DNA from: Ischnura elegans
Lineage: Eukaryota > Arthropoda > Insecta > Odonata > Coenagrionidae
NCBI RefSeq assembly: GCF_921293095.1
Contig: NC_060254.1
Span: 3,534,001-3,598,000 of the forward strand
DNA: 64,000 bases
Reading direction: 5' to 3'
Shown here: positions 792 to 43,300 of the stretch, one piece after another
How positions within the stretch are numbered: position 1 is the stretch's first letter
How the letters are laid out: every line of letters begins with the position of its first letter
Notes under the pieces: generated by a model
Databases searched by the model: none
The model's input: the letters and a program-made list of their open reading frames with translations, nothing else
Told to the model about the DNA's origin: nothing
Program-made: the position numbers and the translations under genes

Positions 792-2714
792 TTAAGGTAG
801 GTTTACATGGAGTACTAAAGAAGTGATCTGGGAGCCTTCCTTTCCTTCCATTACCGCCTTCTTCAATTCACTATAAGGCCTACTCCCCTTCAATCTATCC
901 AAAAATCCTACTCTTTTCCTTCCCCTCCCTCGTTTCCCTAACATTCTACCCTCTAACACCTTCTTCAACATCCCCTCCCCGCCGAGTACTCCCTCCATCC
1001 ATACCTTCTGTCTCCTCCGTATCTCATCCAAAAGCTGCCTCTCCTCACCCACCATATCCAGCACCTCGTCGTTCCTTATCCTCTCCGTCCATTTCACCCT
1101 CTCCATTCTTCTCCATACCCACATCTCGAATGCCTCCAATCTTCTCTCGTCTTCTTTCCTCAGTGTCCATGTTTCGGCACCATAGAGAGCTACACTCCAA
1201 ATCAAACTCTTCACTAACCTTTTCTTTAAACTCTTACATAACGATCCTCTAAGAAGCTCCTTCCTGTTCATGAACGCCTCCTTTGCTAGTGCAATTCGCT
1301 TCCTGATGTCTTTGCTACTGTGTCCGTTTTCCTCTAATGTGCTGCCCAAATAGTTAAACTGCTCTACCTGTTCAAGTTTTTCCCCACCTACTTTGATCTT
1401 ATGTCTCACATTCCTCGCTCGCGATACTTTACAAAACCGCATTACCTTAGTCTTCTTGTGATTAATCCTCATCCCATACTCCTCGCACCGCTCGTATAAC
1501 GCATCCACTAGAGCCTGTAATCCCCTCGCTGACTGGCTAATCAGCGCCTGATCATCCGCGAACCTTACCGATTTCAACATCATTCCTCCCACTTTCACTC
1601 CAGCTTCCAACTCGTCCCACGCTTCTCTTACCATCTCCGCAGCGTATACGTTAAAAAGCAGCGGCGATAGAGGACAGCCTTGCCTTACACCTCGCCCAAT
1701 GCTTGCCCACCCAGATTCCTCGCCCGCTACCCTCACTTGCGCAGTCTGGGCCATATAAAGATTACGAATCAGTCGTCTATCCCTCCAATCTACACCTATT
1801 CTCTTGAGAATATCCATCAGCTTAACCCAGTTCACCCTATCAAATGCTTTCTCAAAGTCCACGAAACAGGCATATACGTCTTGGTCATATTCTAGGTTCC
1901 TCTCGACGAGGGACCTCATTACTGCTATTGCATCACGAGTTGATTTCCCTTTTCTGAAACCAAATTGATCTTCGCCCAAATACTCGTTTGCCCTTGTCTC
2001 CATTTGTCTGTTCAATATCCTCAGTACCACCTTCGCCGCATGCGATATTAGGCTGATAGTTCTATAATCTCCGCATTCCACAGCTTTCTTCTTTTTCGGA
2101 AGCGGAATTAGAACCGTCTTCACGAAATCTTCCGGCCAACACCCCTCTTCGTAGATGCTGCGGACTAGTTCAAAAAACCTTTTCTTACTATCCTTCCCTA
2201 GATTCTTCAGAAGCTCACACGGGATATTGTCAACTCCTACTGCTTTCCTAGCCTTCATATCACGAAGTGCTCTCTCTATTTCCGAATCTAATATCCCCGG
2301 CCCAAGATTGTCCTCCTCCACTGCACTTTCATCCTCTAAACTCAATCTCTCCGGCCTGTTTCTTCCGTCATACAGGTCCTCCACGTATTCCTTCCATCTA
2401 CTCTGTACCTCTTCTCGCTCGGTTAGCACTCTCCCATCTTTAGCCTTAATTTTAAACATGGCTTGTCCTCTTTTGCCGCACGATAGCGACTTAACTTTGG
2501 CGTACAACGCGCCTACTTCTCCATCCTTCTGGAACTTTTCCATTTCCTCACACTGTATTTTCCACCATGCCTCCCTTGCCCTCTTAGTTTCACGACGTAA
2601 TCGATTATTTAGTTCCCTATACATTCTTTTTCCCTCCTCTGTGTCCACGCTCTTCCACTTCCTTCTCTCCTCCATTTCTTTTACCATCGCCTCCGTAACC
2701 CAAGGCTTTTTTTA
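792..2714 (-). CDS. RTE LINE reverse transcriptase
   Basis: A continuous minus-strand frame of about 630 residues. Visible RT motifs in order are FVDFEKAFDRV (aspartate motif A), GVRQGCPLSPLLFNVYA (motif B), RFADDQALI (the catalytic AD-D box) and LGSTLEENG. The C-terminal part has the LYGAETWTL / EMWVWRRM segment typical of RTE and BovB-like elements. The polymerase would copy element RNA at a nicked target site. The stop lies just before the short 3' UTR. The upstream part is joined to the endonuclease frame through a T-run at about 2707-2713, where the frame shifts by one base. Diverged pieces of the same family lie at 50213, 58890 and 60524. Confidence 0.9.
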
Positions 2715-3713
2715 TCCTTCTGCTGTCAACGTAGCCAATTGACTTCTCCGCCGCCTTAGCTATTCCAGTTTTAATATTATCCCATCTTTCCTCAACAGAC
2801 TTCGTACCTTCAATCTCCCGTACACTGATGTCCACTAGTTCCCGATATTCTCTCCTCATACTCCCCTTCAGTGCTTCTACATTCCGTTTCCGCACCCTCC
2901 TGCCTTTCATGAGCCTTTTGAATCTTACATTGCATTTCATAAGTACTAAATTGTGGTCTGAATCCGCATCTGCTGCTGGGAAGCTGCGCGAGTTTTTCAC
3001 ACTATTCTTAAACCTCTGTCTTACCATAATGTAGTCTATTTGATATCTGCCTACATCCCCTGGACTTTTCCATGTGTACCTTCGCCCTTTATGATGTTTG
3101 AACCACGTGTTTGGGATGAATAACTTGTTTCTCTTGCAAAATTCTGCTGCTTTCTCGCCCCTGTCGTTTCGAATTCCTAATCCAAATTCTCCTGTTTTGT
3201 TTCCATCCCTCCCTTCCCCGACTGAAGCGTTCCAGTCCCCCATCACTACCAGATTTTTCTTACCCGGTGTGTTTCTAATTATTTCCTCAAGCTGTTCGTA
3301 AACCTCATCTACTTCTTCCTCCCTATGATTGCTGGTGGGCATGTAAACTTGGACCACCACAAGGTTGGCGGGCCGCGCCTCAATTTCTACCACCAGAATC
3401 CTATCGTTTACCTGGTCTATACCTACCACACGCTTACCCAACTTCCCGTTTAATACTAATGCTACCCCTCGCTGGCTTTCTTCCCCTCCACTATATATAA
3501 CCCTATACCCATCACTCCAATAGTCCCCCCCCCCCCCCCATCCCTCCACCTCACCTCGCATAATCCTAAGATATCTATCCTCCCTTTATCCATTTCCCTT
3601 TTGATATTTTCTAACTTTCCCGCCCTCATCATAGTCCTCACATTCCACGTCCCCACATTTATAGCCGACTTCTTCTTCTCCATCTTCTTGGTCTTCTTTT
3701 CTTCTTTCTTCAT
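2617..3713 (-). CDS. RTE LINE apurinic-like endonuclease
   Basis: The N-terminal domain of the same LINE, in two overlapping frames. The 3713-side frame starts MKKEEKK and shows GTWNVRTM and ILGLCEVRW. The 2617-3561 frame continues with VVMGDWNASVG, a YTWKSP segment, IDYIMV and the terminal SDHNLV motif. These are the Asn/Asp/His positions expected of APE-type LINE endonucleases that nick target DNA. The frames meet at a long C-run (about 3525-3539 on the plus strand), so the break could be an indel in a homopolymer, real or from sequencing. The basic N-terminus may bind RNA or DNA. Confidence 0.85.
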
Positions 3714-17973: not shown

Positions 17974-18849
17974 CTACGTCAAACAAGAAAACTCATCCCA
18001 CAATCTTTGAAACTCGGAAGCAAATGGTTGAACGATACCCGGCTCCGACGTGATAATGACATTTTCCCAATTAGCCGTGACAGCCTGCATCGTCCAGTTG
18101 AAAGATCCACATATGAGGCACTCACCATCGATAATTGCAAACTTATGATGCATCAGCTGGAGTACTTTCTTGGTCCTTATTGGTATCCCTAATACAGAAG
18201 AAAGATAAAAATTAGAAACACATGTATTGCAAAGGCGAATGGAAAATATTCAAAATAAACAAAACATGATCCCTCTTCACCAAACAATAATAAAATCATC
18301 CACTTTGCTCCATTACATAACATGTTCACAATATGTTTGCATTCCTCGATACCCACCATGCCTCCTAAATAACTCAATGCGAGAACCCGTGGAATTGGCC
18401 ATCTCGTAATCAACAATTACACGTATCTTCACACCATTTCTCTTCAAGTTAACAATTTCTTGCCCTATTTCTTGGCAAGTTAGAATGAAGATGCAGACAT
18501 CCAGGGTTTTCTTCGCCTGCCTCAGGCGAATTATCACACGCCTAGAGATAAAGCCTATTAAAATTTGCTCTCTATGAATATATCCAATTAAAAATAATTA
18601 GTGTTACCTTAAATTCGTCATTTCGTGGATATATGAGCACATGTTTTGGTTGCATCCCGACTTCTTCTCGAAAAAGGCTGGGCATGCGATTCCTTTATCG
18701 GGGAAAAATAGAACTTCATTTTCCACTTTAGCCTTCGGGATCCGTCTTAACTTCTTAAAAGCGTAATATATTATTTCCGATCCCACGGCAGTAACGGTAA
18801 TTGCAGCTAAAATTTTCAATTTCGAATTGCTTAAGTCAAAATACGACAT
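17974..18849 (-). CDS. zuc: Zucchini / PLD6 mitochondrial cardiolipin hydrolase-like nuclease
   Basis: Three exons on the minus strand: 18849-18608, 18541-18357 and 18188-17974. All junctions are GT-AG and the coding length of 642 nt gives exactly 213 residues plus stop. Residues about 11-31 form a hydrophobic N-terminal anchor. C56, C66, C71 and H75 make a CCCH knuckle as in MitoPLD. The single HKD motif is H156-x-K158-x4-D163, followed by GSFNWT at 170-175. The family acts as a dimer on the outer mitochondrial membrane, where it makes the 5' ends of phased piRNAs and has also been reported to hydrolyse cardiolipin. At 213 residues it is somewhat shorter than the Drosophila and human proteins. 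The start is the only ATG before the anchor. All key residues are present, so it looks functional. Confidence 0.93.
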
Positions 18850-19265
18850 CTTCGCTTAGCGGCTTTTATTTATATTAACAAATGCGCATCGAAAATTGAG
18901 GAGCGGGTGGTAGGGTGAATATGATGTAGGCGGAAGTTTTAAATTAAAAGTTCTAGTTCAATTTTAGTTTTACAAACTCAGCACTTTTCAGTTGCTCTTA
19001 TACATAAAATTGAGTACTTCCACGAATAAACATACAATACTTAAATGCACATTCAAACATGCAATATTATGAGGTATCCTAATATGCAGTGCTGTAGTTA
19101 GGAAAAAAAATTTAGATGGTACTCAACAAAATTTGCCAACAGCTGGACATGTACTATAAATCCGGGCATGATTAATATGTCAAACTCCAACTCTTATATC
19201 AGTTTCAAGTTCTACCAAGAGATAACTCTGAACAAGTAAATAATCATTTCTGATTTTTCTTTCTA
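18850..19265. other. Zucchini upstream region
   Basis: AT-rich sequence upstream of the Zucchini start. No TATA box or initiator could be assigned with confidence. The promoter of Zucchini should lie in the first few hundred bases. Confidence 0.35.
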
Positions 19266-22354: not shown

Positions 22355-25300
22355 ATGATCGACTTAGTTGTGGAAAACGGTAGAGTTCTAGTGTGGAATG
22401 TCGAAGGTAATTTTTCTGCAGATGTCTGTATTTTGTGCGAGTATTTTTTCCTTCCGAAGACTATAAAAAATATATGTATTCTTACTTTTAGACGTTTTCA
22501 AAATACGCCAAGATTACCGCATTGTGGGTCACCTCATAGGAAGTGTTGTCAACTTGTCATACCAAGAGAAGTAAGTTTAAATTATGAATTCGCCCATATT
22601 TACATGTGTATGCTGTTCACAAGTGTTGGAAGTCTTTTTCTCATTGCTATAACATGCAAATTATTGCACATTTTGAGTAATCATGAATTACGTCAATCTT
22701 ATTTGAAAAGTGTGCTGCGCAATACGGAGAATACTTCAACTTCGAAAAACTGTAATGTATTAAAGACCGTGATTGTCGGTAGTATGAATTTGTGTTGTTG
22801 TTGGGTTATCAAGAGGTGCACAGTTACGGTTTAAAAAGTATTGAGCTTTCTTGATCAACATTGTTTAGAATCACTTCTGTACTTATTTCATGTGCAGGCA
22901 TCAAGGTCTTCCTCTGGCTCTAATGAAAGAAGAGGTGAATCTTTTAGTCGATAAAGGATTTGCCCGGCTTGTTCAAATTCCAGCCCTCCAACAGAAACCC
23001 TCCCATGAAGCAGTGGAGCGATTTAAGGAGCATAGGGAACAAAATTATCACAAACAGGTTTGTATTGTATTGAAATTTACTGTCTCTGTTATGCAAGTTA
23101 AGGCTATCTCTGCGCATCAATTATTAGTTAATTCCTATTTTACGAATTCAGTTTTTGCAGTGATGAAATCAATGATATGATGAAGTTTCTGGATTACGAA
23201 AATATATATATAGTTCTCTTTTTGTAGAGTACATGAATTATTTTGCTCGTTAAGGTCTATAACTGTAGGCTTAAGAAACTCTGATTATAAGTAGCTATAA
23301 TCAGTGTTTCTTAAGCCTATCATAAAACGTAGAGTGCTGGTTCAATGCCCTTGGATAGTGGAATAACATACGTGGAATAGTTGTCTACGGTCTTTTTAAT
23401 TCTGGTGCTACATTTCATTAATTTTTTAAGTATATTTGAATATATTGTGGTTCCTCAATACTTCATGGAGTGTTCGTATGTGCAGATAATTTTAAATGCT
23501 GTATTGTATCCGTAAACTTTTGTAATTGCTTGCAAACTAGGTAATATGGGCATCAGAGGCACACCTCTCAACTGGATTGCATCGCACCTTCACAATCGAT
23601 CTCAGACAGTAAATCTTTTGATCGATGGCACTAAACATACCTCTAGTATTTGTTCATCCTCAATGGGTGTCCCACAAGGGTCTATTCTTGGACCTTTTCT
23701 ATTCTTGATATACATTAAGGTTTACCTACAACTTTATCATACACAGATAATATATACACCAAACCGATGACACAAATGTGATCATCTCCTCTTCTTCACG
23801 TAGCTACCTGATTGATAAAGCTAGGCAAGTTACAGAAATACTTGGTAAGTGGGCCAATGAAAACCATTTAATTGTAAACGCTGAAAAAAGCAAATTGATT
23901 CATTTCTCCACAGCGAAAAATTCTCATCAAGCCTACTTATTAAGAGTAATCACAAATCAATTGAGCAAGTGTCTTCTCTCCAGTTTCTGGGTGTATGTTT
24001 GAGTTCAAATCTTTCCTGGACCCAGCATACTGATCTCTTGAGTCATAATCTAAGTTCCACATGTTACTTACTGAGACAACTTAGTACAGTGGAACCTCGT
24101 TAAAGCGAGTACGGGCTATAGCGACACCCCCGCTATTAGGAGAGATAGCCGATGCACCGTCAATTGACCCTATAATAAGCGTGTTAAAAAATTCGTTTTT
24201 ACGAGACCCTTTCGGTGTTGGCTCTCGCTATAGCGAGGGTTTCACCGCCGGAAGAATTTCATCAAGACTCCTTAACCTCTGTAATTGCTAGCGATCTGTT
24301 AGAAATGAAGCTAATGGAGTGCTCAGTCTCAAATTTATGTGGTAAACTGTCGTTCGATAAATGTAATGATTGACGAAACAATGCTTTGCATGATTTTTAT
24401 TCAGTGCGGCGCTTATAAATTGTTTGAATAGTTAGTCGTAGTTTGAGTGAGGAAATTTAGTGATGCAAAAAAACATCGCCTTTCGTCTGGATTTACGCTT
24501 ACGTTTATCGGATAGATGTTTATCTGTCGCCGCACCACTCCTGTTCCTGTATATCTGTTCGCAACAGGTATATTGGCTATTATTTGCTCCACCTCCGGTA
24601 AAGCGACAATTCGCTATAGCGAGTGTTTATTTGTGCACCGTGGTGTGTCGTTATATCGAGGTTGCACTGTAGTTCAGTGAGAAGGGATACACTCCTTACT
24701 CCGTACTATGGGTTTGAGTTTTATTCCCATATCATACACAGTATAATTTTTTGGGGCTCCTCTCATCTCAACTCATTGCGCATTTTCAGACTTCAAAAAA
24801 AGGCTGTTAGAATCATAGCCCAGAAACCATCCAGATACTCATGCAGACCCTTATTCAAGGAGCTAGGCCTTCTGCCACTGCCTTGCATTTATATAATGAT
24901 TACTGTGTTGTACATCAAATCTAATATCATAAGCTTTCCCCTTAACCCTTTCGAGACCGCTGAGTTTTCGTCTTAGCATGACTGCTGTACTGAGCCCCAA
25001 GAAACTCTTCTTTCTCGTGGTACGGAGCATTTTTGAGGGCATTCGTTGAGAAGGGTCTAGCGGATTATTACACTCTCCGAGCTCCAACCTTTTTCGCCCC
25101 CTCGCAGCGGGGACTCCGCATTATCTCGGGCAGCGAGGGTTGATGTACTCCCTCCTTTCTGGGTTCACGACCATACCTGCGGAATTGGTTCGCGGTCAAC
25201 TTATGGATTGCTTATATGGATTTTTCAAATGGATAATTGTTGCTTGCACGTAAATTGCAGACTTTGAATTGAATTCCTCTTTTTTTTCTGAGCATTGTCA

Positions 25301-28300
25301 AATTTTAAACGAAGTTCTACGGTCAATTTTAACGGATTTAATGCATCAATCCTTTCAATGCCAAATATATGCTCCTAAAATTTTTCTTATCAAATTCAAA
25401 CCCTTCCAAAAATCTCATTAGCTATTTCTCCGAAATGCATTACTCGAGGTAAAAAAAATCCTTGCAAGAAAAGCTCTTTGTCTGTCACAGGGCAACCTTG
25501 GTATCCCTTGGAAAGTACGCTCCACTCGGGCATTCAGAACACCTGTGGAGCTTCTCTGGAATTGCATCCATCAGTATAATTATGTTTTTTCTCGGAATTT
25601 TTTAAATCCCTCATTTTGTTTGGAAAATACGCTCCACCACGGGCTGAAACAACTCATGAAGACATTCTCTGGAATTCCACCCATCAGTATAGAAACGTAT
25701 TTCTCAGAATGGGTAAAGTTCATTCTCGTTCACATACCCACAATTCTTTTTGATTATAAAGTTTCCCTTCACTTCTGTCTAAGTCGTTCTTGGGTTCAGA
25801 CGTTTGTGGTTCTCATTCTGCGAGTGATAACTTTACTGTATTCGTCGTGAAAAATTGGCAGTGTACCACCAGTGTTTTTTAATCTCTGTTTGCTGCGGCT
25901 GGAATCATGGCGAAGAGATTGAAAACGGATGAACAGATATTGGAGATTTTGACCCGCAGTGGTAGTGAGGATGGAGACCTGTGCTTCGATTCCGAGGACG
26001 ATGATCTGGGAATGGAGGTTGCTGGTGAATTGACATCTATATCGCTGCCCTCGACATCCAGGATATCGCGGGAGCTGCACTTCTCCGCGGCTACGTCTGA
26101 TGATTCCTCGTCCGATGCGGAGGAAAATGCTCCCAAGAAAAGGAAGATAAGTGATAAAGGCACAGTTTGGCGAGCCAAAGATTTATCGCCGAAGATATAT
26201 AATTTTGATTCTTCCTCTTCTGGCTGTAAGGCAGATGTATCTGAAAACTCGACAATTTTAGAATTTTTTGAAATTTTCTTTTCCGAAAATTAGGTGCAGT
26301 GGTTGAACAAGAAAATGGAAATTGACTTTACAGGAAGTATTTCACAAGAACATTTGAATAAAATTCAACAAATTACGCAAAAAATATTTAAAAAATTTCG
26401 GGTAAGAATAGGGGTGTTAACCTCAAACGAAAATACCCATTTAAGTAGATGATAACGGTGAGTTTTGGCTAATAATTCACATTGGTGAAAAAATTTCTGC
26501 AATAGGTGCATTACATTTTCTTTAGTGCTCCGTTGAAATTTGTGCGCCTTTGAAACGGCCAGTTTCGGCGGGAAGTCAGGCTCGAATGGCTGTGACGTCA
26601 CACACAGCTACTTCGCTGACTGCACGCTTTCGGTGAACGCCGTTATCCGAGCCGTGCTTGAATTTGTGGATGCCGTGGTGAGAAATGCCTTCGGATTGTG
26701 GTTTTGTGAGGGCTAATTCTAATACTGTACCTAACATGAGTGCTCTGATTCTCATTTTTCATCATTAATAAATAGAGGGCAAGGCAAGAAAAATATCTAA
26801 ATACGCAGTAATGACATTTTTAGCGCTCCGGAAATTCAAGGAGTCAAGCAGGCAAGTTAGGAGTCAATGCATATTAATTATGATAGCACTGTTAAATATG
26901 TTAATCGTACTTATGAGTATATTTTGCATCAAATACTTAATTTTGTTACGATTTACTCAACCTTGGCTTCCATTTTTATTCGAATTATCCCCTAGTAAAC
27001 GCTGAAATGGTTCTCCAGGGGTACATTTCATAATATATCACAAATCTCTGTCACGCAATGCTCGTTTTTTTAGTTTTAAAGGCTTTTGATAATTTATAGC
27101 CTATAAAAACTTAGGTGACATAAGGGAACTAATACCGTAAAATAATCATCTTGTTTGTCTCAGATTTGTCTGAATCATGATATGGAATGGCGAATTATTG
27201 TAAATATTTATTATTGTGAATGTTACTTTAAGGCCCCTTGCACACGCACCGATTTTGGACGGCCGGTAAAATACCGGCCGATATTTTACCGGTAAAGCGC
27301 TGCTTGCACACACGCCGGATTTTCACAGGTCAAAAGATAAGTTGCTTGGTTGTAGAGCTGGCGCAGGGGATCCGCAGTGGCATTGGCCGGTAGCTAACCG
27401 ACTTTTTACCGGTGCCGGTGCCTGGTCGGTCAGTGTGCAAGCTCCCATACCCTTCCATTGTTCACCATTGGAATGTTGACGGCCGTCCAAAATCGGCGTG
27501 TGCTATGGGTCTAAGGGTTGATAACTATTTCAGCCCTGCCAGAAAAGAATACGGCGATTCAGCAGTTTGCTATATCCAACTGAAAAGAGAATAATATATA
27601 CACTATGAAAGGGAGAGTTTGTCCTGAGCACAAAATCAGAAGAAACCACAGGAAAAATAATTTTTGTCACTTATTCTTCCGCCATACCCAGAGGAACAAA
27701 ATTTAAAAATTCATTTGGTTCACAAGGTACTAAATACTTGATGGCATTACATTTTTTATACTCACTCCATGTCAAATCTTGCTTTATTGGATCAGAGGGC
27801 TTTTGAATTTGAATTTCAAAACATTCAATTATATACTGTACATTGCTGTAATTGGCTTAAAAGACAAAGGTAGATCAAATTTGTTATGCTTCGGAAAAAA
27901 TATTAAATTTTTTAAGCGATGAGAAATAAGAGGTAAAGTTGTGTGGATAGTAGAAGAAACTCTCGTCTTACTTATTTGTAATTGGTCTCCTAATCTCTTT
28001 AAGTTGTCATTCAATTTAATTTTGATGATGGTGATGAAAATGTCTCTGGTGGCAATCTTAAATATTCCAGACGGCAAATCAACGACGTACATTGGATCAT
28101 TAGGTATTCCTAAGTATCCATTGGGGTAGCTTCATTATTAAGTCAGTTATATTATTGTTTTCACCAACTCCAAAACTCTCGGCTGAGAATGTGCTCGAGA
28201 ATATTTCATCAATAAACATTATGTTTGGTTTCTGTATGGCAATCTCTGGTGTATTAAATCTAAGACTAAGTTAGCATCAATTAACTTCGGTGTTCATTGA

Positions 28301-31300
28301 ATAGAAGCATAAACATTGTTCTTAATCTTTTGTAAATTATTTCCCTTCAAATAACTTATATTAAAATTGTTTTCGTCCGTTCGACTTATTTTGGAAGACC
28401 GCAAGTAAAACAATAAATCACGTTAACTGACGTTGTAATGCTGGGATTTAGTATAAATTTAACACTAACATTAAAATAATCTTCACAGCAATAATAAGAT
28501 GTCTTGCCGTTGATGTTTTTGGTCATCTCGCATTGCTGCAGTTAACCATTTCCTTCGCACACGAGAATTAAGAGGCACAGCAATAAAACGTTTTCCCGGA
28601 TTTCTTATTGTGGTAGAATTACAAAGCGGTAGAAAGCAATATAGTATATACGCCTTCTTCCTAATTTCCTCCATTTTCACCCTCGTTGTGTCTTCTCTGA
28701 CGCAGGATCACAGGTTTTTCGACGGGGTTGACGGGTTCCGCGAGAAGTTCGCTGTGTGTGACGTCAGCATGCCTTCGGCAACCATCGTGCGCTCTCGGAG
28801 CGTTTGAGCCGGCCCTCGGATTCCACACTTTTCGCTTAGCCTTTTTGGGATTAAATTTTTGAATAGAAAAGCGCTGAAACTGCCGCCGGTATCCTCTCGG
28901 TGTGCACTTTCATTTAAGATAGTAAAAAAAAATTGGTGAACAACCCTATTATCAGTCGTAATATGATAATTACACTGAAATCGAGATATAAGTTAATATT
29001 TATCGTAGAATTTCGTTTAAAAATTGTAAACGCTGATCAAAAGACAAACAATTCAATTCTTAGTTTATAGTTCTTGAGAAATGAACAAATATTTATTTCG
29101 AAAATTGACTCTATAAACAATTGTATGACCGCTGTCCCTTACCACTGAGAGGGGTTATTAAAGACGAAGGGTCCGGGTACCTGCTCCCGGATTCGGAGGG
29201 TTAATCCTAAACCCCGAAGCATTGGGTCCCGAGACAGAGGCGACCTAAACCCACGACCGTCCTGAAAGGGGGAGAGCTAGAAAACGTATATATACGGGTT
29301 TCGTTTTCTTGACCGGGAAAATCTCACACGTACATATACGCCCGTGGTCTCCCGGGTCAGGAAACGTCCACACGTATATATACGTGTACGGTAGGGAAAA
29401 GGTTAATAGTGACCATCACTCCCATCACACGAGATGCAAGCATGACATACATTACACTACTACAAGGACAAACTTAAACAAACTGGTCCTGAGGGAAATG
29501 GGGGTACGACTATATAGTAAACTCCCTGCTGATGTAAAAAATATTAAAAAATTTAAAATGCAATTAAAAAGGTTCCTTCTTTCAGGTTCATATTACTCTT
29601 TGGAGGAATACTTACATGAGTTAAGGGCTTGATGGAATGTTATACAATGTGATTTTTTTTCCTTCTTTGTTATGAGTGATTATTATATGTGATATATATG
29701 TACACCGATTTTATGCTTTGTGAAGTAACTCATGTTTTTGATGGATGTGCCTTATACCTTGACGAATGTACCTTGGTCTTTTGGGCAAATAAAACATATT
29801 ATTATTATTGCTTAATAGTTTGCTGAAAGCTTGCTTATACACATGGAATGAACCAATGTAATTACATATTTATTTTAGTCAGTGATAAATCACCTTGACA
29901 AAAAGAGTATATAAATAAAACATTGAAGAAAAACCAATGGAAGATGTTTCTCTTTATACAAGGAGGAAATTCCATTCTAAACGTTGTTGTCAAAGGAATT
30001 GCCTCCCATGCTTTTTTTACCGTGGGTTTTTTTCTCATTCACCCATTGTGTGTTCCAATTTATTCTGTCCATTCTAAGGCCCACGCACACTGATGGTAAC
30101 TTTTGTAAAGCAACTACTTATGTAGTTACTTTGAGGAGGTTCAAATAAAACACACAGCATTGACTGTGGCCTCGCACACGGGCGACTTTTTAGTTGCCAC
30201 AACAAAATAATTGTGTCTGGACCTATTCCGAGGGTGAGTAAATATTTCCGGCAGAAATAGACCACGTGGGTTTTTAGCAACTAAATACATAGTTGCTTTG
30301 AAAAAGTTGCCAGTGCGCGGGGGCCCTAAGTGGGGTCGGCATGATTTATCTGACCCGAAAAAATCTACTTTATTTATATGTATACACTGTTTTTATGTTC
30401 TTATCATTTGGATTTTTGTCTTCTGCAGCCTGTTTGTATCACCAGAGATTTCCATTCATAATTTTACTGACAGGCTGTAGCCAAAGGCCTGAGTAAACTG
30501 TTAGAGAGAGTCAATTAGCTGGACTCCAGTGTGAGCATCTTCAATCCATGAGACGAGAGAAATGCCTCCAATGGAATGTTCGAAATGGCCATGGATTGAT
30601 AGAGATTTTACTATAGCTATTACTCCTATCTCTTGCTTTTGATGTTTTGGAGGCTGGGATTATTGAGAACAATATGTGGTGCCGAATAATTAGTTCATCA
30701 AAAATTCAGTGTGTTTGAACAAGTCAACTCATTTATTGTGGTTTATGAAATATTATATGAAATGTTTCACAATTAAACAATGGACCAGTTCCACCACTTT
30801 GACCTTAGTACCACAATATGTATACAGCTGAGGACCTCAAATCCGGAGAGCTTGAGACCAAAGGATTCCTGGTTTTTCTGGATTTCTCCTCTTCAGCACG
30901 CGGAAAAAGTGGCACACTTTTTTTTGAGAATTTTAATGCAATAAAACCATAACTCAGAAATTCCACATGAAAGGGATTTTAACATTAATTAGCATAAACC
31001 TTCTAGCAGTATTTCAATTTAATATGTAAAACTTTGCTTTGCTTACTTTTAAAATGATTGCATTCTACATGTGGATGGTCTGTCGAACAACAACCCCCAC
31101 AAGAACATTTGTCGCCTTGATATGGATTCAAGTACACTACATTGGAGGAGGCAAAAAACTTGTGGAATACGTCGTCAAATCACGACCGTAGCTTCCGCAG
31201 CATAAACTGTTCAAGCTTAATACGGGATGAGAACGAGCAATAAATACATCTTTTTCGTCATGCTCAATAGCTTTCATTGATAGAATTTTGCTAGCGGACA

Positions 31301-34300
31301 TTGCCATATCAATTGATACCTTCCTTAGTTGGACAGTAAATCTTTGCCAATGCTTCTATGTACATATATTGCACACGGGTGCAAAGTAATCAGAAACTTT
31401 TATTAAAATTCCTCCTAATCTGTTGAGGTATTGCCTTCATTTCTGTTTTATCTGTGTATACCTTGGTGATCATATATATCATATATATCATATACCTGCC
31501 ACTCTATATTTATTAGTTCTTACGAATTTATTCAGATGTAACTAATTCCTTTTTTTAACTCTTGTGTTGAAGTTGAAATTAATTTTTTTGTTTGTCTAAA
31601 GTATAAGAATTTTTGGATGTATTTTGCATAATTACTTGTGGTGGAAAATGTTTGAATTGCATTAATGAATGTATTCATTGTATTTTAGGTTGCTGCTTAC
31701 CGAGAAGTAAGAGAAAAACAGCTACGGAGTATGATAGACCGAATTGTGGAGGGGAAGCAGAATAAAAGGAAGCAGCGCATGGGCATCACAGGCTCACCAA
31801 TCCCAAAACATGTCAAGAAAGAAAAATCTAAGGCAAATGAGGTAATGTTTTTCAAGTTTGTATATCACACGGAATATGGTGGAACTGTTTAAAAATCATA
31901 TTCAGTGATTCCTCAACGTATGAAGAAGATGCATTCTGAGACATTATTCGTAAGTTGGAGCCATTTCTAAGTTGAAAAAACCTTAGCAAGGCACTGAAAA
32001 GTGTAGTTATCCTGTCTTATGCAGCACTTCATTACAATTTTGTGTTAACTCTCGATGGTCATGAACAGTGGCGTAGCCAGAGGGTCCGGGCCCCCCACGA
32101 AATATTTAGATGCATAAAAAAATTAATTAAGCATGGATCGGCTGAAAGTCCACAGATAATAAATTATCATGTCATTGTTAAAACAGGTTTTTCCTTTTGT
32201 TAAAATAATACATTATAAAACGATACATTTACGTTCGGCTCAGTTGATTGGCTAAGGGAAAGTCACGTGTCGGGAAACTTTCCATCCCCCCCCCCCCATT
32301 GCTTTTGCAATACCAGTACACCTGCAAATTTAAATGAACGAAATGAACAGTGTCTACAGCTGAATATTTGCTTGTGTTTAGTTGATGTAAAGACTTCTGT
32401 TGTGTCACCAGCTAATTTATATTTGCAGACAGTAACGGGATGAGTGTTGTCCTTTTGATGTTTGTTTAACGCTATGGAATCAAGTTTTTATTTTACTCCT
32501 CACTGCTGCTTCTTTTAACAATGAGTAAGAGAACCATTGATTAGTTTTTTGACCAAAAACTTTAAAAATGATCGCGGAATCAAGAGAACAAGTGTTAGTT
32601 TTGCTGTTGCCCCGAGAGGTAGAAGAAACCACTGATGGCTCGAAGGAAGAAGAAAGAAGTTATAAATGAAAGTGAAAAAACTTTGTGAATGTCCACAGTA
32701 TTTATTCAAGTACGACTCGTTTCAGCGAATCATCGCTATCATCAGGTACAAATGCATGGTTTACATCAAGAAGTCTTATATATGTACATGCGGAAAGGAG
32801 GGTGTATGGTTATGAGTTGGTGAAAGTGGGAGAGGGGTTGGGGGGTAAAGGATGGGGGAATGGAGTGGGGAAGCGGAAGAAGAAAGAAGTCCGTTAATTC
32901 CAACTCCATGTTGTTCATCCTCTTGTGCTCAGTCAAATACTATTTGGCGTACAGATTATCAATTAAGCATCATTGGCCTAACCTCTATAGATATAGGAAT
33001 AGTTTTTGACCAGTTATTTCACTCCAAAACAGAGTTTTATAAATCTGCGGATTTGAAAAGCGAAGTGTTGAATGATTTATTTTATCCAGATGAGAGTTGT
33101 ATTTTTCCAGTAACCATCATTAACAATAAAAATTAAAGTTTCGTGGTACCTGGCTAAAAAGGTTCAATTGGCTTGCTTATTCTAAGGTTAAGGATGGAAC
33201 TTATTGTAAGTTTTGAGTGTTATTTGCCAATGTGTTCACTGGTAAAGGCCAACACCAAAAATTGGGAGCCTTAGTAACTCTGCCTTATAGGAAGTGGAAA
33301 GACGTAATAGATAAATTTACCTCTCAGTGTAACTTTGAATACCACAAATTTTCTTGTGTAGTTGCAGAAAGTTTATTAAGGTCGATTCTGGCCGAGTAGA
33401 AGACATCGAAGACATGATGCTGGATTCGCAGAAGGAGAAAGAAAAAGAACAAAACAGAGCTTCACTCTAGCCTATAATTGACACAATTGTATTCTGCGGT
33501 GAAAATGAAATACCCCTTTAGGGACGTCAGGACAGTGGACCACTAACGGCTGAAAAACCTTTAGAAAAGGAGGGCAAATTTCGAGCCTTGTTTAGGTACC
33601 GAGCAGTCACTGACAAAAGTTTAAAAAACCACCTTTTTAATTGTGCACGAAATGCAACCTATATTAGCCCTGAAGTACAGAATGAAATTATTAACATTTG
33701 TGGAAAACGTATGCAGAAAATAGTTGCTTAATCTGTAAACAGTGCAGATTGTTTTTCCATTTTAGGAGATGAAACGCTTGATGTGCCTGGAAAAAGCTGT
33801 TTTCACTTTGCATTCGGCACATTTCGAAAGAAAATAAACTTATCCTGAGAGAAGACTTCATCGCATTTACCTACATAACTGATTTGTCTTCTGAAAGCAT
33901 TTACGAATCTATTTGAACCATTTGTGCCAGTGTAGGTCTCAACATGGATAAAGTCATTGGCTGGGTGTGATGGTTTTTCAACGTTTAGTGGTCATTTGCC
34001 TGGCATTCATAAAAGATTACGCAAATCATATCTCAAAGCTGTTTATATGCACTGTGTTGCACACCGTCTGAATTCGGGTTTGAGTGACTCCTTAGACATC
34101 CCTTACGTAAGAAACTGTGTGGGAGCTGTAAGTGAAGTGGTCGATATGATGAGAAATGATACTCAAAGTGGTGACTTTTTAAAAAGACATATTGAGAATC
34201 TTGTACCAGACTCTCAAAAAACACGCCTCCTGGGCCTGTGTGACACAAGATTCATCGGAAGACAAGATTCTATCAAAGCATTTGTTGAAGCTTTTCCAGC

Positions 34301-37300: not shown

Positions 37301-40300
37301 AGAAGGTTGTCAATTAATATATTCGCTAATCCTCCTCACTCCACCGGAGTAGTGGGGGAGGAGGGCAACGCTGACGTCAGCAGAACTCTCAGAACTTCTT
37401 TAATGAGCGACCTGTTTCCTTCTGCCAAGGACCGACTCCATGCCCCCAGAATTTCAGTCGAGTTGACGGCGCTAAACTCAGCCAGACCTGGAAGAGAATC
37501 TTCCGGAAGAGAACACAGCGATGATGTTGCAAGCAAGGTTATTCACCAGCCTCATGGAAGAGTCCGCTCGCCGCTCAAGGACAGGGCTGAGAGTTCTGCT
37601 GACGTCAGTGTCATCCTCCTCCTGCACTACTCCGGTGGAGTGAGGAGGGTTGGTGAACATGTTTATTGACAACCTTCTTCCGATTTTCATTCATCGCCTG
37701 ATGATGAGCCCTGTAACGGATGCGAAAGCTTGCACAACAAAGCGCAGCACGTAGATGCTCCCGGAAACCGTTCGCAATAAAAATAATAGGTGGCCTTTTT
37801 TAGTAATAAATTTTTAAATAATGACTTAATTTTTGTTTAAACAAGTCCTATTTGTTTATTATTGCTCCAAATGACTTGCAATTTATGTCAGAATGTGCAT
37901 AAATGATTTTTTTTTTCAAAATGAAACATTAACCACTGCTTTATGGGCCATGGTTCTTTGGAAGTCATTATTTATGTATTTTTCATTTTTTACTCTTGAT
38001 GCCTGACTCTGCAATGTTCAAAGGATAGTAACTTTATAAGGGTTCAGTTCTGAGCTGAGATAAAGTGATCATTATTCATCATAACGATACTGCTTTCATA
38101 TATATAACTTTCAGAGAAATCGGTGGTGGTCGCCTGACATGATTTTGCACAATCTGCCTGATTTGAGATGAAATGGCTCAGGGTGTAGATAAGTTTCTAT
38201 CATATAAGTGATTGAACGAACTACGGTCGCTAAACAGTTGAAAGAAAACTAATTCCCCAGGGCCGTACTCTTTGGTGGGCAGATGGGGGTGAGAAGATAT
38301 AATGCTAACAAGGGGAGTAATGAACGAAAACATGGTAAAACACTAAGAGATTATACAAATGCGAAACTCACAACAGCACCTCGCGGATTTGCTCCAAGGA
38401 ACAAATGTCCGCGGAGGACACACGAACTCACTCACTCAGGTTTGTGAAGCTCTCGCTTACGACAGTGACTGTCAAACACACGGGAGTTGGGAAAGGTGGA
38501 AGGGTAGTAAGTGCCCAAGAAGTATCTCCAAAGCCTTTTCAAGTTTCTATCATCTGAGAATATTACCCTCAGCAATAATTCCCATGGGTAGTAATTTCTA
38601 CCCCATCAGCAGTCTTCAGCTAATAATATTTAAGGACTGGGCACCACCCTGCAAAACATCAAATCCTTTGGATAAGCGGAAAATTGTATCTGAAATTTTT
38701 TATTCGATACCCAGTGGTCACCCTGCAAGTTCTTACACCCCCTAACGTGTTCAATTCTGTGCACATTTGTTGTAAAATTCGTATTTCCGTCTTATTTCAC
38801 TCTTTTCACCTGTTTTCCCATCACTTATTTCTATTCTTTTTATAATTACACTTAGGGTAACATTTTGGTGTTATTAATTGTGGTTGTCCTTGAGGTTTAA
38901 TTGTTCTCGATTGGAGATGCTGTATTCATTTATTTTAATCTCCCTTTTTTTTTAATTTCAGTGTCTCCATTCATTGATGCCATCCCTATGGCTGATCCTC
39001 CTTGGGATTATCCATCGAATGAAAAGGAATCTCTCCAGTATCGTGTCTTCTGTGACCTTTGGGAGAGAGGTCACTACATTACTCCTGGCCACAATTTTGG
39101 GGGTGATTACCTAGTTTACCCAGGTGAGTGGGAATGAGTCCTTAAAAAAGGAATCTACCCAAGGAAGTGGGTAGGTGATCCGTGACTTAAAGCAGGTAGC
39201 CATGGGGAAAAAGGGGGCTTTGTGTCTTTGGGGGGTCCTGCCGCCTCCTACCACTGGGAACACTTCCCCTTGTTGCAACTGTCACCATACATACCCTTAG
39301 GAGCCCCAGGTGGACTCCAGCTTTCTCTTTGCCAATAACATACTCAATGCAGATGCCTTTAATTCAAGATGTGCTGTGCTAGCCCTGGACATGGATGCCT
39401 TGAATACAAGGTATTGGTGCAGTTATCCTTTTTTCCATCACATGCTGTATGAATTATGTATTAATTGAGATCGGTGAAATTCGAGAGACGCGAAATAACA
39501 TGAAATCAGTAAATAAAAATGACATTTTGCAATTTTAGGTCAATTAGTGAAAAATCACAATTAATGAGTCATAATCTATTTAAATCTATCTCATTACAAA
39601 TCCAAGGTCAATTCGCTTGTTTTGTCTCGCGCATATAGAATTCGCGTAGTATCGCGCACTGTAGTGATGTCTCCGCCGGAATTTGCCGTTAAATTAATCG
39701 TGACCTCTCTCTTTGCTTCACATTTATCAACCCTGGAATAATCAGAAATGTCTAGAATGACGCGCTTTCTCTCCTGAAGAATGAGATACAGTAAACTCTT
39801 GATTTTACGAAGTCAGTGGGACCGGAAAATTGGCACTTCGTAAAATCGAGTTTCGTAAATTCAAACCTTTTTCATAAGTCACGAAAAAATTTTCGCTTTT
39901 GTTTCTTCCGCCGTTTTTTGTCTTTAGTGGTCTTATTTAAATGTTTTCGGTGGTTATTCTCTGTATAATTCATAGAAAAGGCTTTTTGCTATCGATTTAT
40001 GATGTGAAAAATCGTTAAATAATTATATCACCGTAAAATTCCCATTTCTTGTTCATACTTCAACATCAACGATCGCTAAAGAAATTCCCGACCAGTTTAG
40101 AAAACGTAATCAAATAATGAATTGCAATGTTTATTAACAAGTTTGCAAGAATTAACAGTTATAAATTTGCGGTTAGGAGCCAATAGCTACTATTAAGTAT
40201 GCAAACGATAGATATTTGTTTCTGACACCCACGGAATTTTAGCGGCAGCCGGCCTAACCGCCATTTATGTCGCCCTCTATCGCTCAGTGACGAGAAAAAA

Positions 40301-43300
40301 AAGAAAAACAAGGGTCTTAGCCCGTTTCCAAAATAACCTTCGTAAGTTAATATTTCGAGTTACTTCGTATTTTCAGCATAATGTGCTCTATTTTCACTGA
40401 GATTCAATTACGATCATAAATAACATAGGATGTGATTATCTTCTGGCGAATATTTGAAGTAAATTCTGTTTGAGTTCTCCGTCCGACTACTGTGTTCCAT
40501 CATCTTCGCAGACGTTGCCATAAAAGACTTAATTCTTCATCAGGACTGTATTCTTCATACCGGGTGTGAGGTGACCTGTTCATATAGTATGTTTCTCTCA
40601 TTTTATGCCGACAGGAGCAAGGTTCCAACCGGAAAACGACAGGAGAAACATCTTACAGTATCGGAGAAATATAGATAGAAACGTTATTATCCACATTGAT
40701 TGTTTTCCTACAAGAGACGTTTTATCATTTCTCAACGTGGTTAAGTATTGGTTCGCTAGCGTGAATTCCCAAAAAATGACACGCAAAAACCTGTACCGTC
40801 ACCTCATTTAGTTTTCGTGTTCCTTTCTCCGCCGTATTGAAAGTTAGGCAAAGGATCATTGACATAGAGAAAAGATTTTCTTAGTTTTAGCACTAAAAAA
40901 TTGTCGCGCCATAATCGTAAATAAATATAGTGTGGAAAGAGCAAAGAAATTAATTTCAATTGAAAAGTCAGCAGAGAAGAAGAGAGACAATTATAAGCGC
41001 GGCACCATTTTCCCGATAGTGGAAGATACTTCTTCCGCCTCTCTCCGGTTAATAACTTCCCCCCGTTGCAGGTAAAGATGAACCATGCCCTTCTCCACAA
41101 TCGGGGAACGTTCCCAGTGGGTGGGGTGAATAAGAGTGGGATGGGGATTGCCTGAGGGAAGAAGTGTGGTCAGCACAAGGACTGGTGAAGGGGGCAGGAC
41201 AAAGAAGGGTGGGGAAATGGCCTTCAGCTCTGCCTCAGTCTACTTTTGGGGGCCGTATTTTTTTGCGACGCACACAAGCTCAGTCTTCTTAGGGAGGGAG
41301 TGAATGGGAAATGCTGGGGAAGGAGGGGTTTGGGATGCGTAAGGTGGGTGTCAGCAAGATCAGCCAAAGGCGGCAGGAGGGAAGGGACGGCTTTGGAAAG
41401 ACAGAACCCCAGCATGGGAGAACGGGGAAGCGCGTGAGAAGAATGTTCATGGTTAGACTTGGAAGTGCGTCTTCATTACGAGAAGCCTGAAATATAAATT
41501 GGCGGTAAATAGAGCCCAGTACTTAAGATATTTAAGTTGTTCATTCACAAAGGCCAATATATACACGAAAAGATATTATGGCGCGGATTGCATGTATCAA
41601 CGTCCATTTCGGGATGTTATTAATTTCTGTTCCCATTTATAAAAGTAGCAAATATATTTGAAAGAATGATAATCATGAATAAAAATATCTAAATCAATAT
41701 CCAAATGCACATGAGCAAAATAGATGAATGTGTACATACCGATCCATCGCAAGTAATACCGCTCAAGCTTCTTCCGGTATAGGACTTTAAAATTCTGGAT
41801 AATGCCTTGGTCCAAGGGCTGGGACTTGCTAGTCGAGTTCGGGGGTAAAAAGAGGACTCGAACATTAGCCAATTTTAGACCTTCCACGTATTTATGAACG
41901 GTGGCATTATCCATTATTAAAACAATTTTGCTGTTCTCTCCAGAAATTTTTCTGTGTAGACGTATAACCGTTTGCTGGAAAATTTCTCGGGTCATCCAGC
42001 TGTTTTTATTTGCATGGTAAAAAACGGGGAGGGCTTCCAATTTTACATGTTTTAAGCACTGTGACCTTTCAAATTTCCCAATGACAACGGGCTTATTTTG
42101 TCCGTGCCCATTTGGTTGACGCACAGCCCCACAGTAACACGCACTTTACTCTTTTTTCCCCCATGGCACCTTTGCCCTTTGAAACCCAGGGTTACGTCAG
42201 GTAAGGCATTAAAAAATAGCCCAGTTTCAGGGGCCAGCGAGGGTGAGCTCGTCGAGGAAAGGGTCCCGGATTAGGGACCCTTCGAAGTGCTTCGGCGAAA
42301 AGTAGTCAAGTAGTCTTCGAAGTACGTTCACAGCAGTGCAAAGGGTTAATTAGGGGTGTACGAAATACTCCGCGCGACCTTCCTGACATGTTAAACTACG
42401 AATTATTGTCGATGCTATGTTTACGAACAGGCACGTAAATAGGGGCATAATGTCAGCCGCGATATTTTAACTTAACTCCTACTCCCCCTAAATTCCCACA
42501 GTGAGGTTTTAGGCGACCCATTTCTCTCCAAAGTTGCATTATCATTTACGATTTCGCACTTTTGATGGACCACAGTTGGAAGCGCTGATTTTTTAGCTAC
42601 TTACGCCGGCGTAACTAGTTTTGTTGACAAATTTTTCGCCGTAGTTCGTATAAACGAATGCCATTTGCTCCTAGGGACCGAGCCGAGGTTCGTAAATTCA
42701 AAAAATTTCGTATAATCGAAACTTCGTATAATCGAATAGCGCCATGTATTTAGCATAGGCTTTTCACCGGGACCGCAATATCACTTCGTATAATCGAAAA
42801 CTTCGTAAAATCCTGCTTCGTAAAATCAAGAGTTTACTGTATTCTGAATCAATGAAAACCTGAAAGAAATTCAACGTGGCCGCGAAAGAGTGAAAAGCTC
42901 ACGTGCCCAGCGCACATCCAATGCCGAGCAGTAATTCCGGTGACTCACCATGACACACAGTAAACAGCGTTATTGGATAACTTGTTGCAGGAAAAACTTA
43001 TGTGTGGGTCTAACTTAACAATTTTGTAGACTTAAACACAGCCGCTGGCTGGGAACGGAAGGCCGCTTTCAGATGAGACGGTTTTCTGCCGCCTGCACAG
43101 CGGCAAACGACGGCGCAGCACACTGCGTGGCGAGTGTTCACTGTGCACCTTTTCTTGCTCACTCTACAATATTAATGGTTGAACCATTTAGGTATGCATG
43201 TACCTTGAACCATTTCCTTCATTTGGTTTTATCAGAAATTTTGTACTGTCGTAATTTGTATTTAATGTTATGTAAAATGCTTAAAAAAGTATAAGCAGTT

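What the first reader, a model, noticed from the sequence alone, without database searches (positions are those of the whole stretch)
23525..29815. Four-level nest of transposons from four superfamilies in one TSEN34 intron
A CR1/Jockey LINE holds a piggyBac (TTAA on both sides, LINE frame resumes across it). The piggyBac holds an ISL2EU (AT duplication, inverted AGGG-TGTT-ACC ends), and the ISL2EU holds a Harbinger MITE (TAA duplication). A Tigger MITE (TA duplication) sits separately in the LINE. Each boundary fits the target duplication its family uses, so the relative order of four families' activity can be read in one place.
Basis: partly seen in the sequence, partly recalled or inferred. 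Interest (0 to 1): 0.75.

Follow-up and report, generated by a model that had tools for sequence, protein, structure and literature searches.

The report
Nested transposons in a TSEN34 intron
An old retrotransposon in an intron was hit by three younger DNA transposons, but the innermost "fourth level" most likely did not insert here: it travelled in as a passenger inside one of them, so this is a well-ordered but ordinary transposon nest.

Summary
The nest is real and its boundaries are correct to within a few bases. Other copies in the same 1.72 Gb genome give paralogous empty sites for Tigger (TA), piggyBac (TTAA) and ISL2EU (AT). The Harbinger-type MITE is different. In 39 of 39 ISL2EU copies matched on both sides of its position (the window's among them), an insert separates the two halves, 278-280 bases long in 31 of them. 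63 filled junctions were found genome-wide. One more distant ISL2EU relative, 88% identical, is empty with a single TAA. The MITE was therefore captured by an ancestral ISL2EU and amplified with it. This locus records four events (LINE, Tigger, piggyBac, ISL2EU with its MITE) and three nesting levels, not four. Private substitutions mark ISL2EU as youngest (0.16%, against 1.26% for the LINE and 0.91% for piggyBac) but do not separate LINE, piggyBac and Tigger. Chronology from nesting and MITEs amplified as passengers are in print (PMC5657132, PMC3903597; passages read), so interest is low. The useful lesson is that boundary duplications alone misread the last step.

The parts
23531..29809 (+). 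5'-truncated non-LTR retrotransposon (LINE), interrupted twice; ends in (ATT)n; possible 7-bp target duplication ATTGCTT (read by eye)
   Evidence: 22 of 40 scored candidates match the joined 715-bp query end to end, one of them to base 714; 18 of 30 fetched copies align up to 23531 and go on upstream, and for the one compared (L005) the upstream 500 bp matches 16 of the other 17; RVT_1 in the window copy below cutoff and in a 651-aa frame of copy L019
24087..24669 (+). Tigger/pogo-type MITE, 583 bp, TA duplication
   Evidence: 871 first-look candidates, 40 scored; 8 of 8 fetched copies end at the same bases with TA on both sides
24946..29402 (+). piggyBac-type non-autonomous element, 1917 bp without its insert, TTAA duplication, ends CCCTTTCGAGACCG and (inverted) CCTTTTCCCTACCG; keeps an N-terminal frame at 25907-26290
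   Evidence: LINE copies contiguous across TTAA; other copies with TTAA; frame relatives
26410..28947 (-). ISL2EU-type non-autonomous element carrying a MITE, AT duplication in A|AT|T; transposase remnant on the minus strand
   Evidence: 33 of 40 scored piggyBac rows run across the site; DDE_Tnp_4 1.6e-9; copies; sister copy L061 99.65% identical over 2539 columns
27232..27511 (+). Harbinger-type MITE, 280 bp, TAA duplication; a passenger of the ISL2EU lineage, not an insertion at this locus
   Evidence: 39 of 39 ISL2EU copies split by an insert at this position; 63 filled junctions; one MITE-free relative with a single TAA; one clade, support 1.000
23058..31688 (+). TSEN34 intron 3, host of the nest
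   Evidence: exons 1-3, joined by me, match Sen34 chains, best E 2.5e-9; donor GT at 23058 and acceptor AG before exon 4 at 31689 read by eye

Best explanation
A 5'-truncated LINE landed in TSEN34 intron 3. It was later hit independently by a Tigger MITE at a TA and by a non-autonomous piggyBac at a TTAA. Most recently a non-autonomous ISL2EU inserted into the piggyBac at an AATT (AT duplicated), already carrying a Harbinger-type MITE that an ancestral ISL2EU had acquired at a TAA. Shown: family boundaries, paralogous empty sites for TA, TTAA and AT, the same-position MITE in the sampled ISL2EU family, and one MITE-free relative. Inferred: mobilisation in trans by autonomous relatives, and that the piggyBac and ISL2EU insertions each took place at this locus.
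For: LINE copies contiguous across both sites: 22 of 40 scored candidates end to end. piggyBac copies across AT: 33 of 40 rows; the others are 2 pieces of the window's own copy and 5 that start 15 bases after the site. The piggyBac|ISL2EU junction occurs once in the genome at up to 3 mismatches. Family ends and duplications in other copies. Private substitutions in the window copy: LINE 15/1190, piggyBac 17/1858, Tigger 4/578, ISL2EU 4/2444 (using 21 of 30, 12 of 28, 8 of 8 and 7 of 9 fetched copies); ISL2EU is lower than LINE (p 4.6e-5), piggyBac (p 5.7e-4) and, marginally, Tigger (p 0.048). MITE as passenger: 39 of 39 copies split by an insert, 31 by 278-280 bases, the rest 249-307 and one 514; 63 filled junctions against 0 for the matching empty pattern; of 15 further copies picked from the 150 rows of a transposase search, 13 carry MITE sequence and 2 lose homology before the site; 17 ISL2EU-borne MITEs form one clade with support 1.000 against 20 from another repeat, and MITE and host distances correlate, r 0.80 over 136 non-independent pairs; the closest ISL2EU copy has the MITE with 1 mismatch in 280.
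Against: No second individual or species is held, so no orthologous empty site was seen. Private substitutions do not separate LINE from piggyBac (p 0.37) or Tigger (p 0.33), nor piggyBac from Tigger (p 0.8). Co-divergence of MITE and host is not clean: slope 0.83, and in seven copies (L081-L083, L085-L087 and L084) the MITE distance to the window is 0.015-0.025 while the host distance is 0.018-0.052. The sister copy L061 has AT on the left but GATT on the right. One LINE copy, L027, begins 3 bases before the TA site, as a 5'-truncated copy would. Only 40 of 86, 2208 and 162 first-look candidates were scored. The piggyBac transposase domain was not seen in this copy.
Confidence: 0.9

Rival explanations
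1. One reading: four successive insertions at this locus, the Harbinger MITE last.
For: TAA on both sides of the MITE in the window; the MITE occurs outside ISL2EU.
Against: The MITE is at the same position in the ISL2EU copies, including a copy 99.65% identical on another contig. Independent hits at one base in dozens of copies are not credible.
Confidence: 0.02
2. The piggyBac already carried the ISL2EU when it jumped into the LINE, so the two inner layers arrived together, as the MITE did with ISL2EU.
For: Cut-and-paste movement of a 4.4-kb composite could leave no other copy; the unique junction does not exclude it.
Against: No other piggyBac copy with ISL2EU at this site was found. ISL2EU has far fewer private substitutions than this piggyBac, though that dates the piggyBac copy rather than its arrival here.
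Confidence: 0.07
3. The MITE-like segment is an original part of ISL2EU that looks like a MITE by chance.
For: Nearly all sampled ISL2EU copies have it.
Against: An ISL2EU relative reads through with a single TAA, and related copies lie in a second, unrelated repeat between TTA and TAA flanks.
Confidence: 0.02

Closest known systems
ISL2EU group of the PHIS superfamily (PMC4482050, passages read)
   Same: AT duplication inside A|AT|T; DDE-type transposase with HTH and THAP-like pieces
   Different: Non-autonomous; no YqaJ domain identified; carries a MITE; first bases AGGGG rather than the usual GG
Rice MULEs carrying the Tourist-like MITE Os0548 at one site (PMC3903597, passages read)
   Same: A MITE of about 280 bp (274 bp there) inserted once in a DNA transposon and then amplified with it; that paper counts 107 such elements, 40 with the intact and 67 with a partial MITE
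   Different: Host there is a Mutator-like element in rice; here an ISL2EU, in what is probably an animal genome (inferred from gene content, not tested)
Chronology of transposons from nesting (PMC5657132, passages read; PMC2517846 and PMC3014933, search listing only)
   Same: Order of activity read from which element interrupts which
   Different: Those works count interruptions over genomes; here one locus, whose innermost nesting would mislead a per-locus reading

Membership tests
ISL2EU | AT target duplication in A|AT|T | tested here: met
   AT on both sides in 7 of 9 copies, with flanking A and T in those seven; window joined site AGAATTATC
ISL2EU | DDE + HTH + THAP transposase | tested here: inconclusive
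   DDE_Tnp_4 1.6e-9, 38.1 bits, above cutoff; HTH_Tnp_4 25 bits against cutoff 27 and THAP 21.8 against 23.9, both just below. Remnants only
ISL2EU | second ORF with YqaJ exonuclease | tested here: inconclusive
   An open frame beside the MITE-free site resembles the second ORF by recall, but Pfam gave no match
piggyBac | TTAA target with TTAA on both sides | tested here: met
   Window; 17 of 21 copies with both ends mapped; four of the 17 share one flank
piggyBac | transposase DDE domain | tested here: inconclusive
   Only an N-terminal frame remains; no piggyBac match in Pfam or PDB.
Tigger/pogo MITE | TA duplication and CAGTG... inverted ends | tested here: met
   8 of 8 copies; ends align over 22 bases. 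That these ends mark Tigger/pogo is recalled
Tigger/pogo MITE | mobilised by a pogo-type transposase | not testable with these tools
   No transposase was recognised in the element; no autonomous partner was linked
PIF/Harbinger MITE | TWA duplication and inverted ends | tested here: met
   TAA on both sides, single TAA at the MITE-free site, ends align over about 42 bases
PIF/Harbinger MITE | link to a Harbinger transposase | not tested
   No autonomous partner was sought
CR1/Jockey LINE | non-LTR reverse transcriptase, 5' truncation, defined 3' end | tested here: met
   RVT_1 2.8e-35 in copy L019; truncated start and (ATT)n end
CR1/Jockey LINE | placement in the CR1 or Jockey clade | not tested
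   No reference tree was made

The most novel reading that the evidence does not exclude
The Harbinger-type MITE family spreads in this genome mainly as a passenger of other repeats rather than by its own jumps: captured once by ISL2EU and once by a second, unrelated repeat, both of which amplified it. All 20 copies fetched outside ISL2EU lie in that second repeat. The sample is biased: the 20 were picked from exact matches among the 100 places listed out of 1040 end matches.
Probability: 0.3. Interest if true: 0.4.

Novelty: new member of a known kind. Interest (0 to 1): 0.2.

Why it matters
It gives one clean record of the order in which transposon families arrived, and a worked example of why target duplications alone do not show where an insertion happened: paralogous empty-site tests turn a four-level nest into three levels plus a passenger. 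It changes no general understanding of transposons.

Tried and rejected
An early reading that the MITE interrupts the ISL2EU transposase domain was dropped: the flank of the MITE-free copy shows a plus-strand open frame there, probably the second ORF, though Pfam does not name it. The strict empty-site pattern gave 0 matches and a looser one gave the single MITE-free copy, so 'no empty site exists' would have been wrong. Linking the DDE_1 transposase remnant in the window (41600-42145) to the Tigger MITE failed: no matching end occurs elsewhere in the window. Two literature searches looked for passenger MITEs and for ISL2EU/piggyBac nests and one for ISL2EU with MITE; nothing is claimed to be absent from print.

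Full report
What was claimed.

The observation. LINE homology runs from 23531 to 29809. Of 30 fetched LINE copies, 18 align up to 23531 and go on upstream; for the one compared (L005) the upstream 500 bases match 16 of the other 17, so the window copy is truncated at its 5' end. Joined LINE flanks keep one reading frame across both inserts. Target duplications alone are weak evidence: random 2-, 3- and 4-base matches in this window occur at 6.9%, 1.9% and 0.5%. The strength comes from the families. Tigger copies end at the same bases with TA in 8 of 8 fetched; piggyBac copies have TTAA on both sides in 17 of 21 with both ends mapped, of 28 examined; ISL2EU copies have AT on both sides in 7 of 9. 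Four of the 17 piggyBac copies share one flank on contig C14 and are not independent.

The gene. Exons 1-3, read before the LINE and joined by me, match Sen34 chains in the PDB, best E 2.5e-9; a tRNA_int_endo match lies in the frame 38901-39134. By splice-site reading exon 3 ends at 23057 and exon 4 begins at 31689. 'TSEN34 intron 3' is right.

Empty sites. With the LINE joined across both inserts (715 bases), 22 of 40 scored candidates (86 in the first look) match end to end, 21 at 93-96% and one at 86%. Only the window's own copy is split at the two sites; one other copy, L027, begins 3 bases before the TA site. With the piggyBac joined across AT, 33 of 40 rows (2208 candidates) run across the site, 2 are the window's own pieces and 5 start 15 bases after it. 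These are paralogous empty sites for TA, TTAA and AT.

The innermost level. With ISL2EU joined across TAA, the 78 matched rows are two halves of 39 copies, the window's among them; none runs through. The halves are separated by 278-280 bases in 31 copies, by 249-307 in seven and by 514 in one (40 of 162 candidates scored). The 39-base filled junction has 63 matches in the genome at up to 3 mismatches; the matching empty-site pattern has none. Of 15 further copies, picked from the 150 rows of a transposase search, 13 carry MITE sequence at the site and 2 lose homology before it. A looser empty-site pattern found one place, C10:2602096; the 251 bases fetched there hold an ISL2EU relative, 88% identical over 167 columns, that runs through with a single TAA and no MITE. 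So the MITE is a genuine TAA insertion, but into an ancestral ISL2EU. The 17 ISL2EU-borne MITEs sampled form one clade with support 1.000 against 20 copies from another repeat. MITE and host distances among ISL2EU copies correlate (r 0.80, 136 non-independent pairs), but not cleanly: the slope is 0.83, and several copies have a MITE closer to the window's than their host sequence is, for example L087 at 0.018 against 0.050. The closest ISL2EU copy, on contig C8, is 99.65% identical over 2539 columns including the MITE. The MITE came in with the ISL2EU.

Order and age. Private substitutions in the window copy are LINE 15/1190 (1.26%), piggyBac 17/1858 (0.91%), Tigger 4/578 (0.69%), ISL2EU 4/2444 (0.16%). 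The comparison used 21 of 30 fetched LINE copies, 12 of 28 piggyBac, 8 of 8 Tigger and 7 of 9 ISL2EU copies, so the counts depend on that sample. ISL2EU is lower than LINE and piggyBac and marginally lower than Tigger; LINE, piggyBac and Tigger are not separable. The piggyBac|ISL2EU junction occurs once in the genome, as expected if ISL2EU landed in this piggyBac, but a joint jump into the LINE is not excluded.

What each layer is. ISL2EU: DDE_Tnp_4 1.6e-9 with HTH and THAP-like pieces just below cutoff and AT within A|AT|T, as described for the group in PMC4482050 (passages), which also puts ISL2EU and PIF/Harbinger in one superfamily. The transposase is only a remnant. piggyBac: TTAA and an N-terminal frame; the DDE domain was not found here, and eight relatives with open frames of 458-623 aa exist but were not read. 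The Tigger and Harbinger layers are assigned by ends and duplications. A related LINE copy, L019, has a 651-aa open frame with RVT_1; the clade was not tested.

Comparison with what is known. Reading family order from nesting is an established method (PMC5657132, passages; PMC2517846 and PMC3014933, listing only). A Tourist-like MITE amplified inside a DNA transposon after one insertion is reported for rice (PMC3903597, passages). The present case is a new instance in another genome and host family.

Verdict. Observation confirmed; interpretation partly supported. Four events and three nesting levels are recorded at this locus, with a passenger MITE inside the youngest. Ordinary biology, low interest.

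Noticed in passing
L097-L116 (fetched): The same MITE family at about 82-86% identity sits between TTA and TAA flanks at one site of a second, unrelated repeat, in 20 of 20 fetched copies outside ISL2EU. Genome-wide the MITE-end pattern has 1040 matches at up to 3 mismatches, ISL2EU-borne ones included.
   Followed up: partly
30078-30325: A further MITE with GGCCC...GGGCC ends and CTAA or TAA on both sides, just downstream of the LINE in the same intron.
   Followed up: no
23266-23319: A near-perfect 24-base inverted repeat with a 6-base loop upstream of the LINE, possibly a tiny palindromic repeat.
   Followed up: no
L032, L033, L034, L036, L039 (contig C14): Five piggyBac copies share the same flanking sequence on an 18.8-Mb contig, suggesting that a segment with one insertion was duplicated repeatedly there.
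   Followed up: no
17977-18855, minus strand: A PLD6/Zucchini-like gene (PLDc_2 4.9e-9; PDB mitochondrial cardiolipin hydrolase, E 2.5e-6), a piRNA-pathway nuclease by recall, lies next to TSEN34.
   Followed up: partly
41600-42145, minus strand: A DDE_1 transposase remnant, E 6.3e-25, of pogo/Tigger type by recall; no end matching the Tigger MITE was found elsewhere in the window.
   Followed up: partly
G000 C5:3893121, C19:121366909, C19:119343644, C3:3413505: Distant relatives (41% identical) of the ISL2EU transposase piece lie in open frames of 459-500 aa in this genome, possible partners for the non-autonomous copies.
   Followed up: no
795-3585, minus strand: A second LINE-like element with open frames of 639 and 322 aa, the former with a reverse transcriptase.
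   Followed up: no
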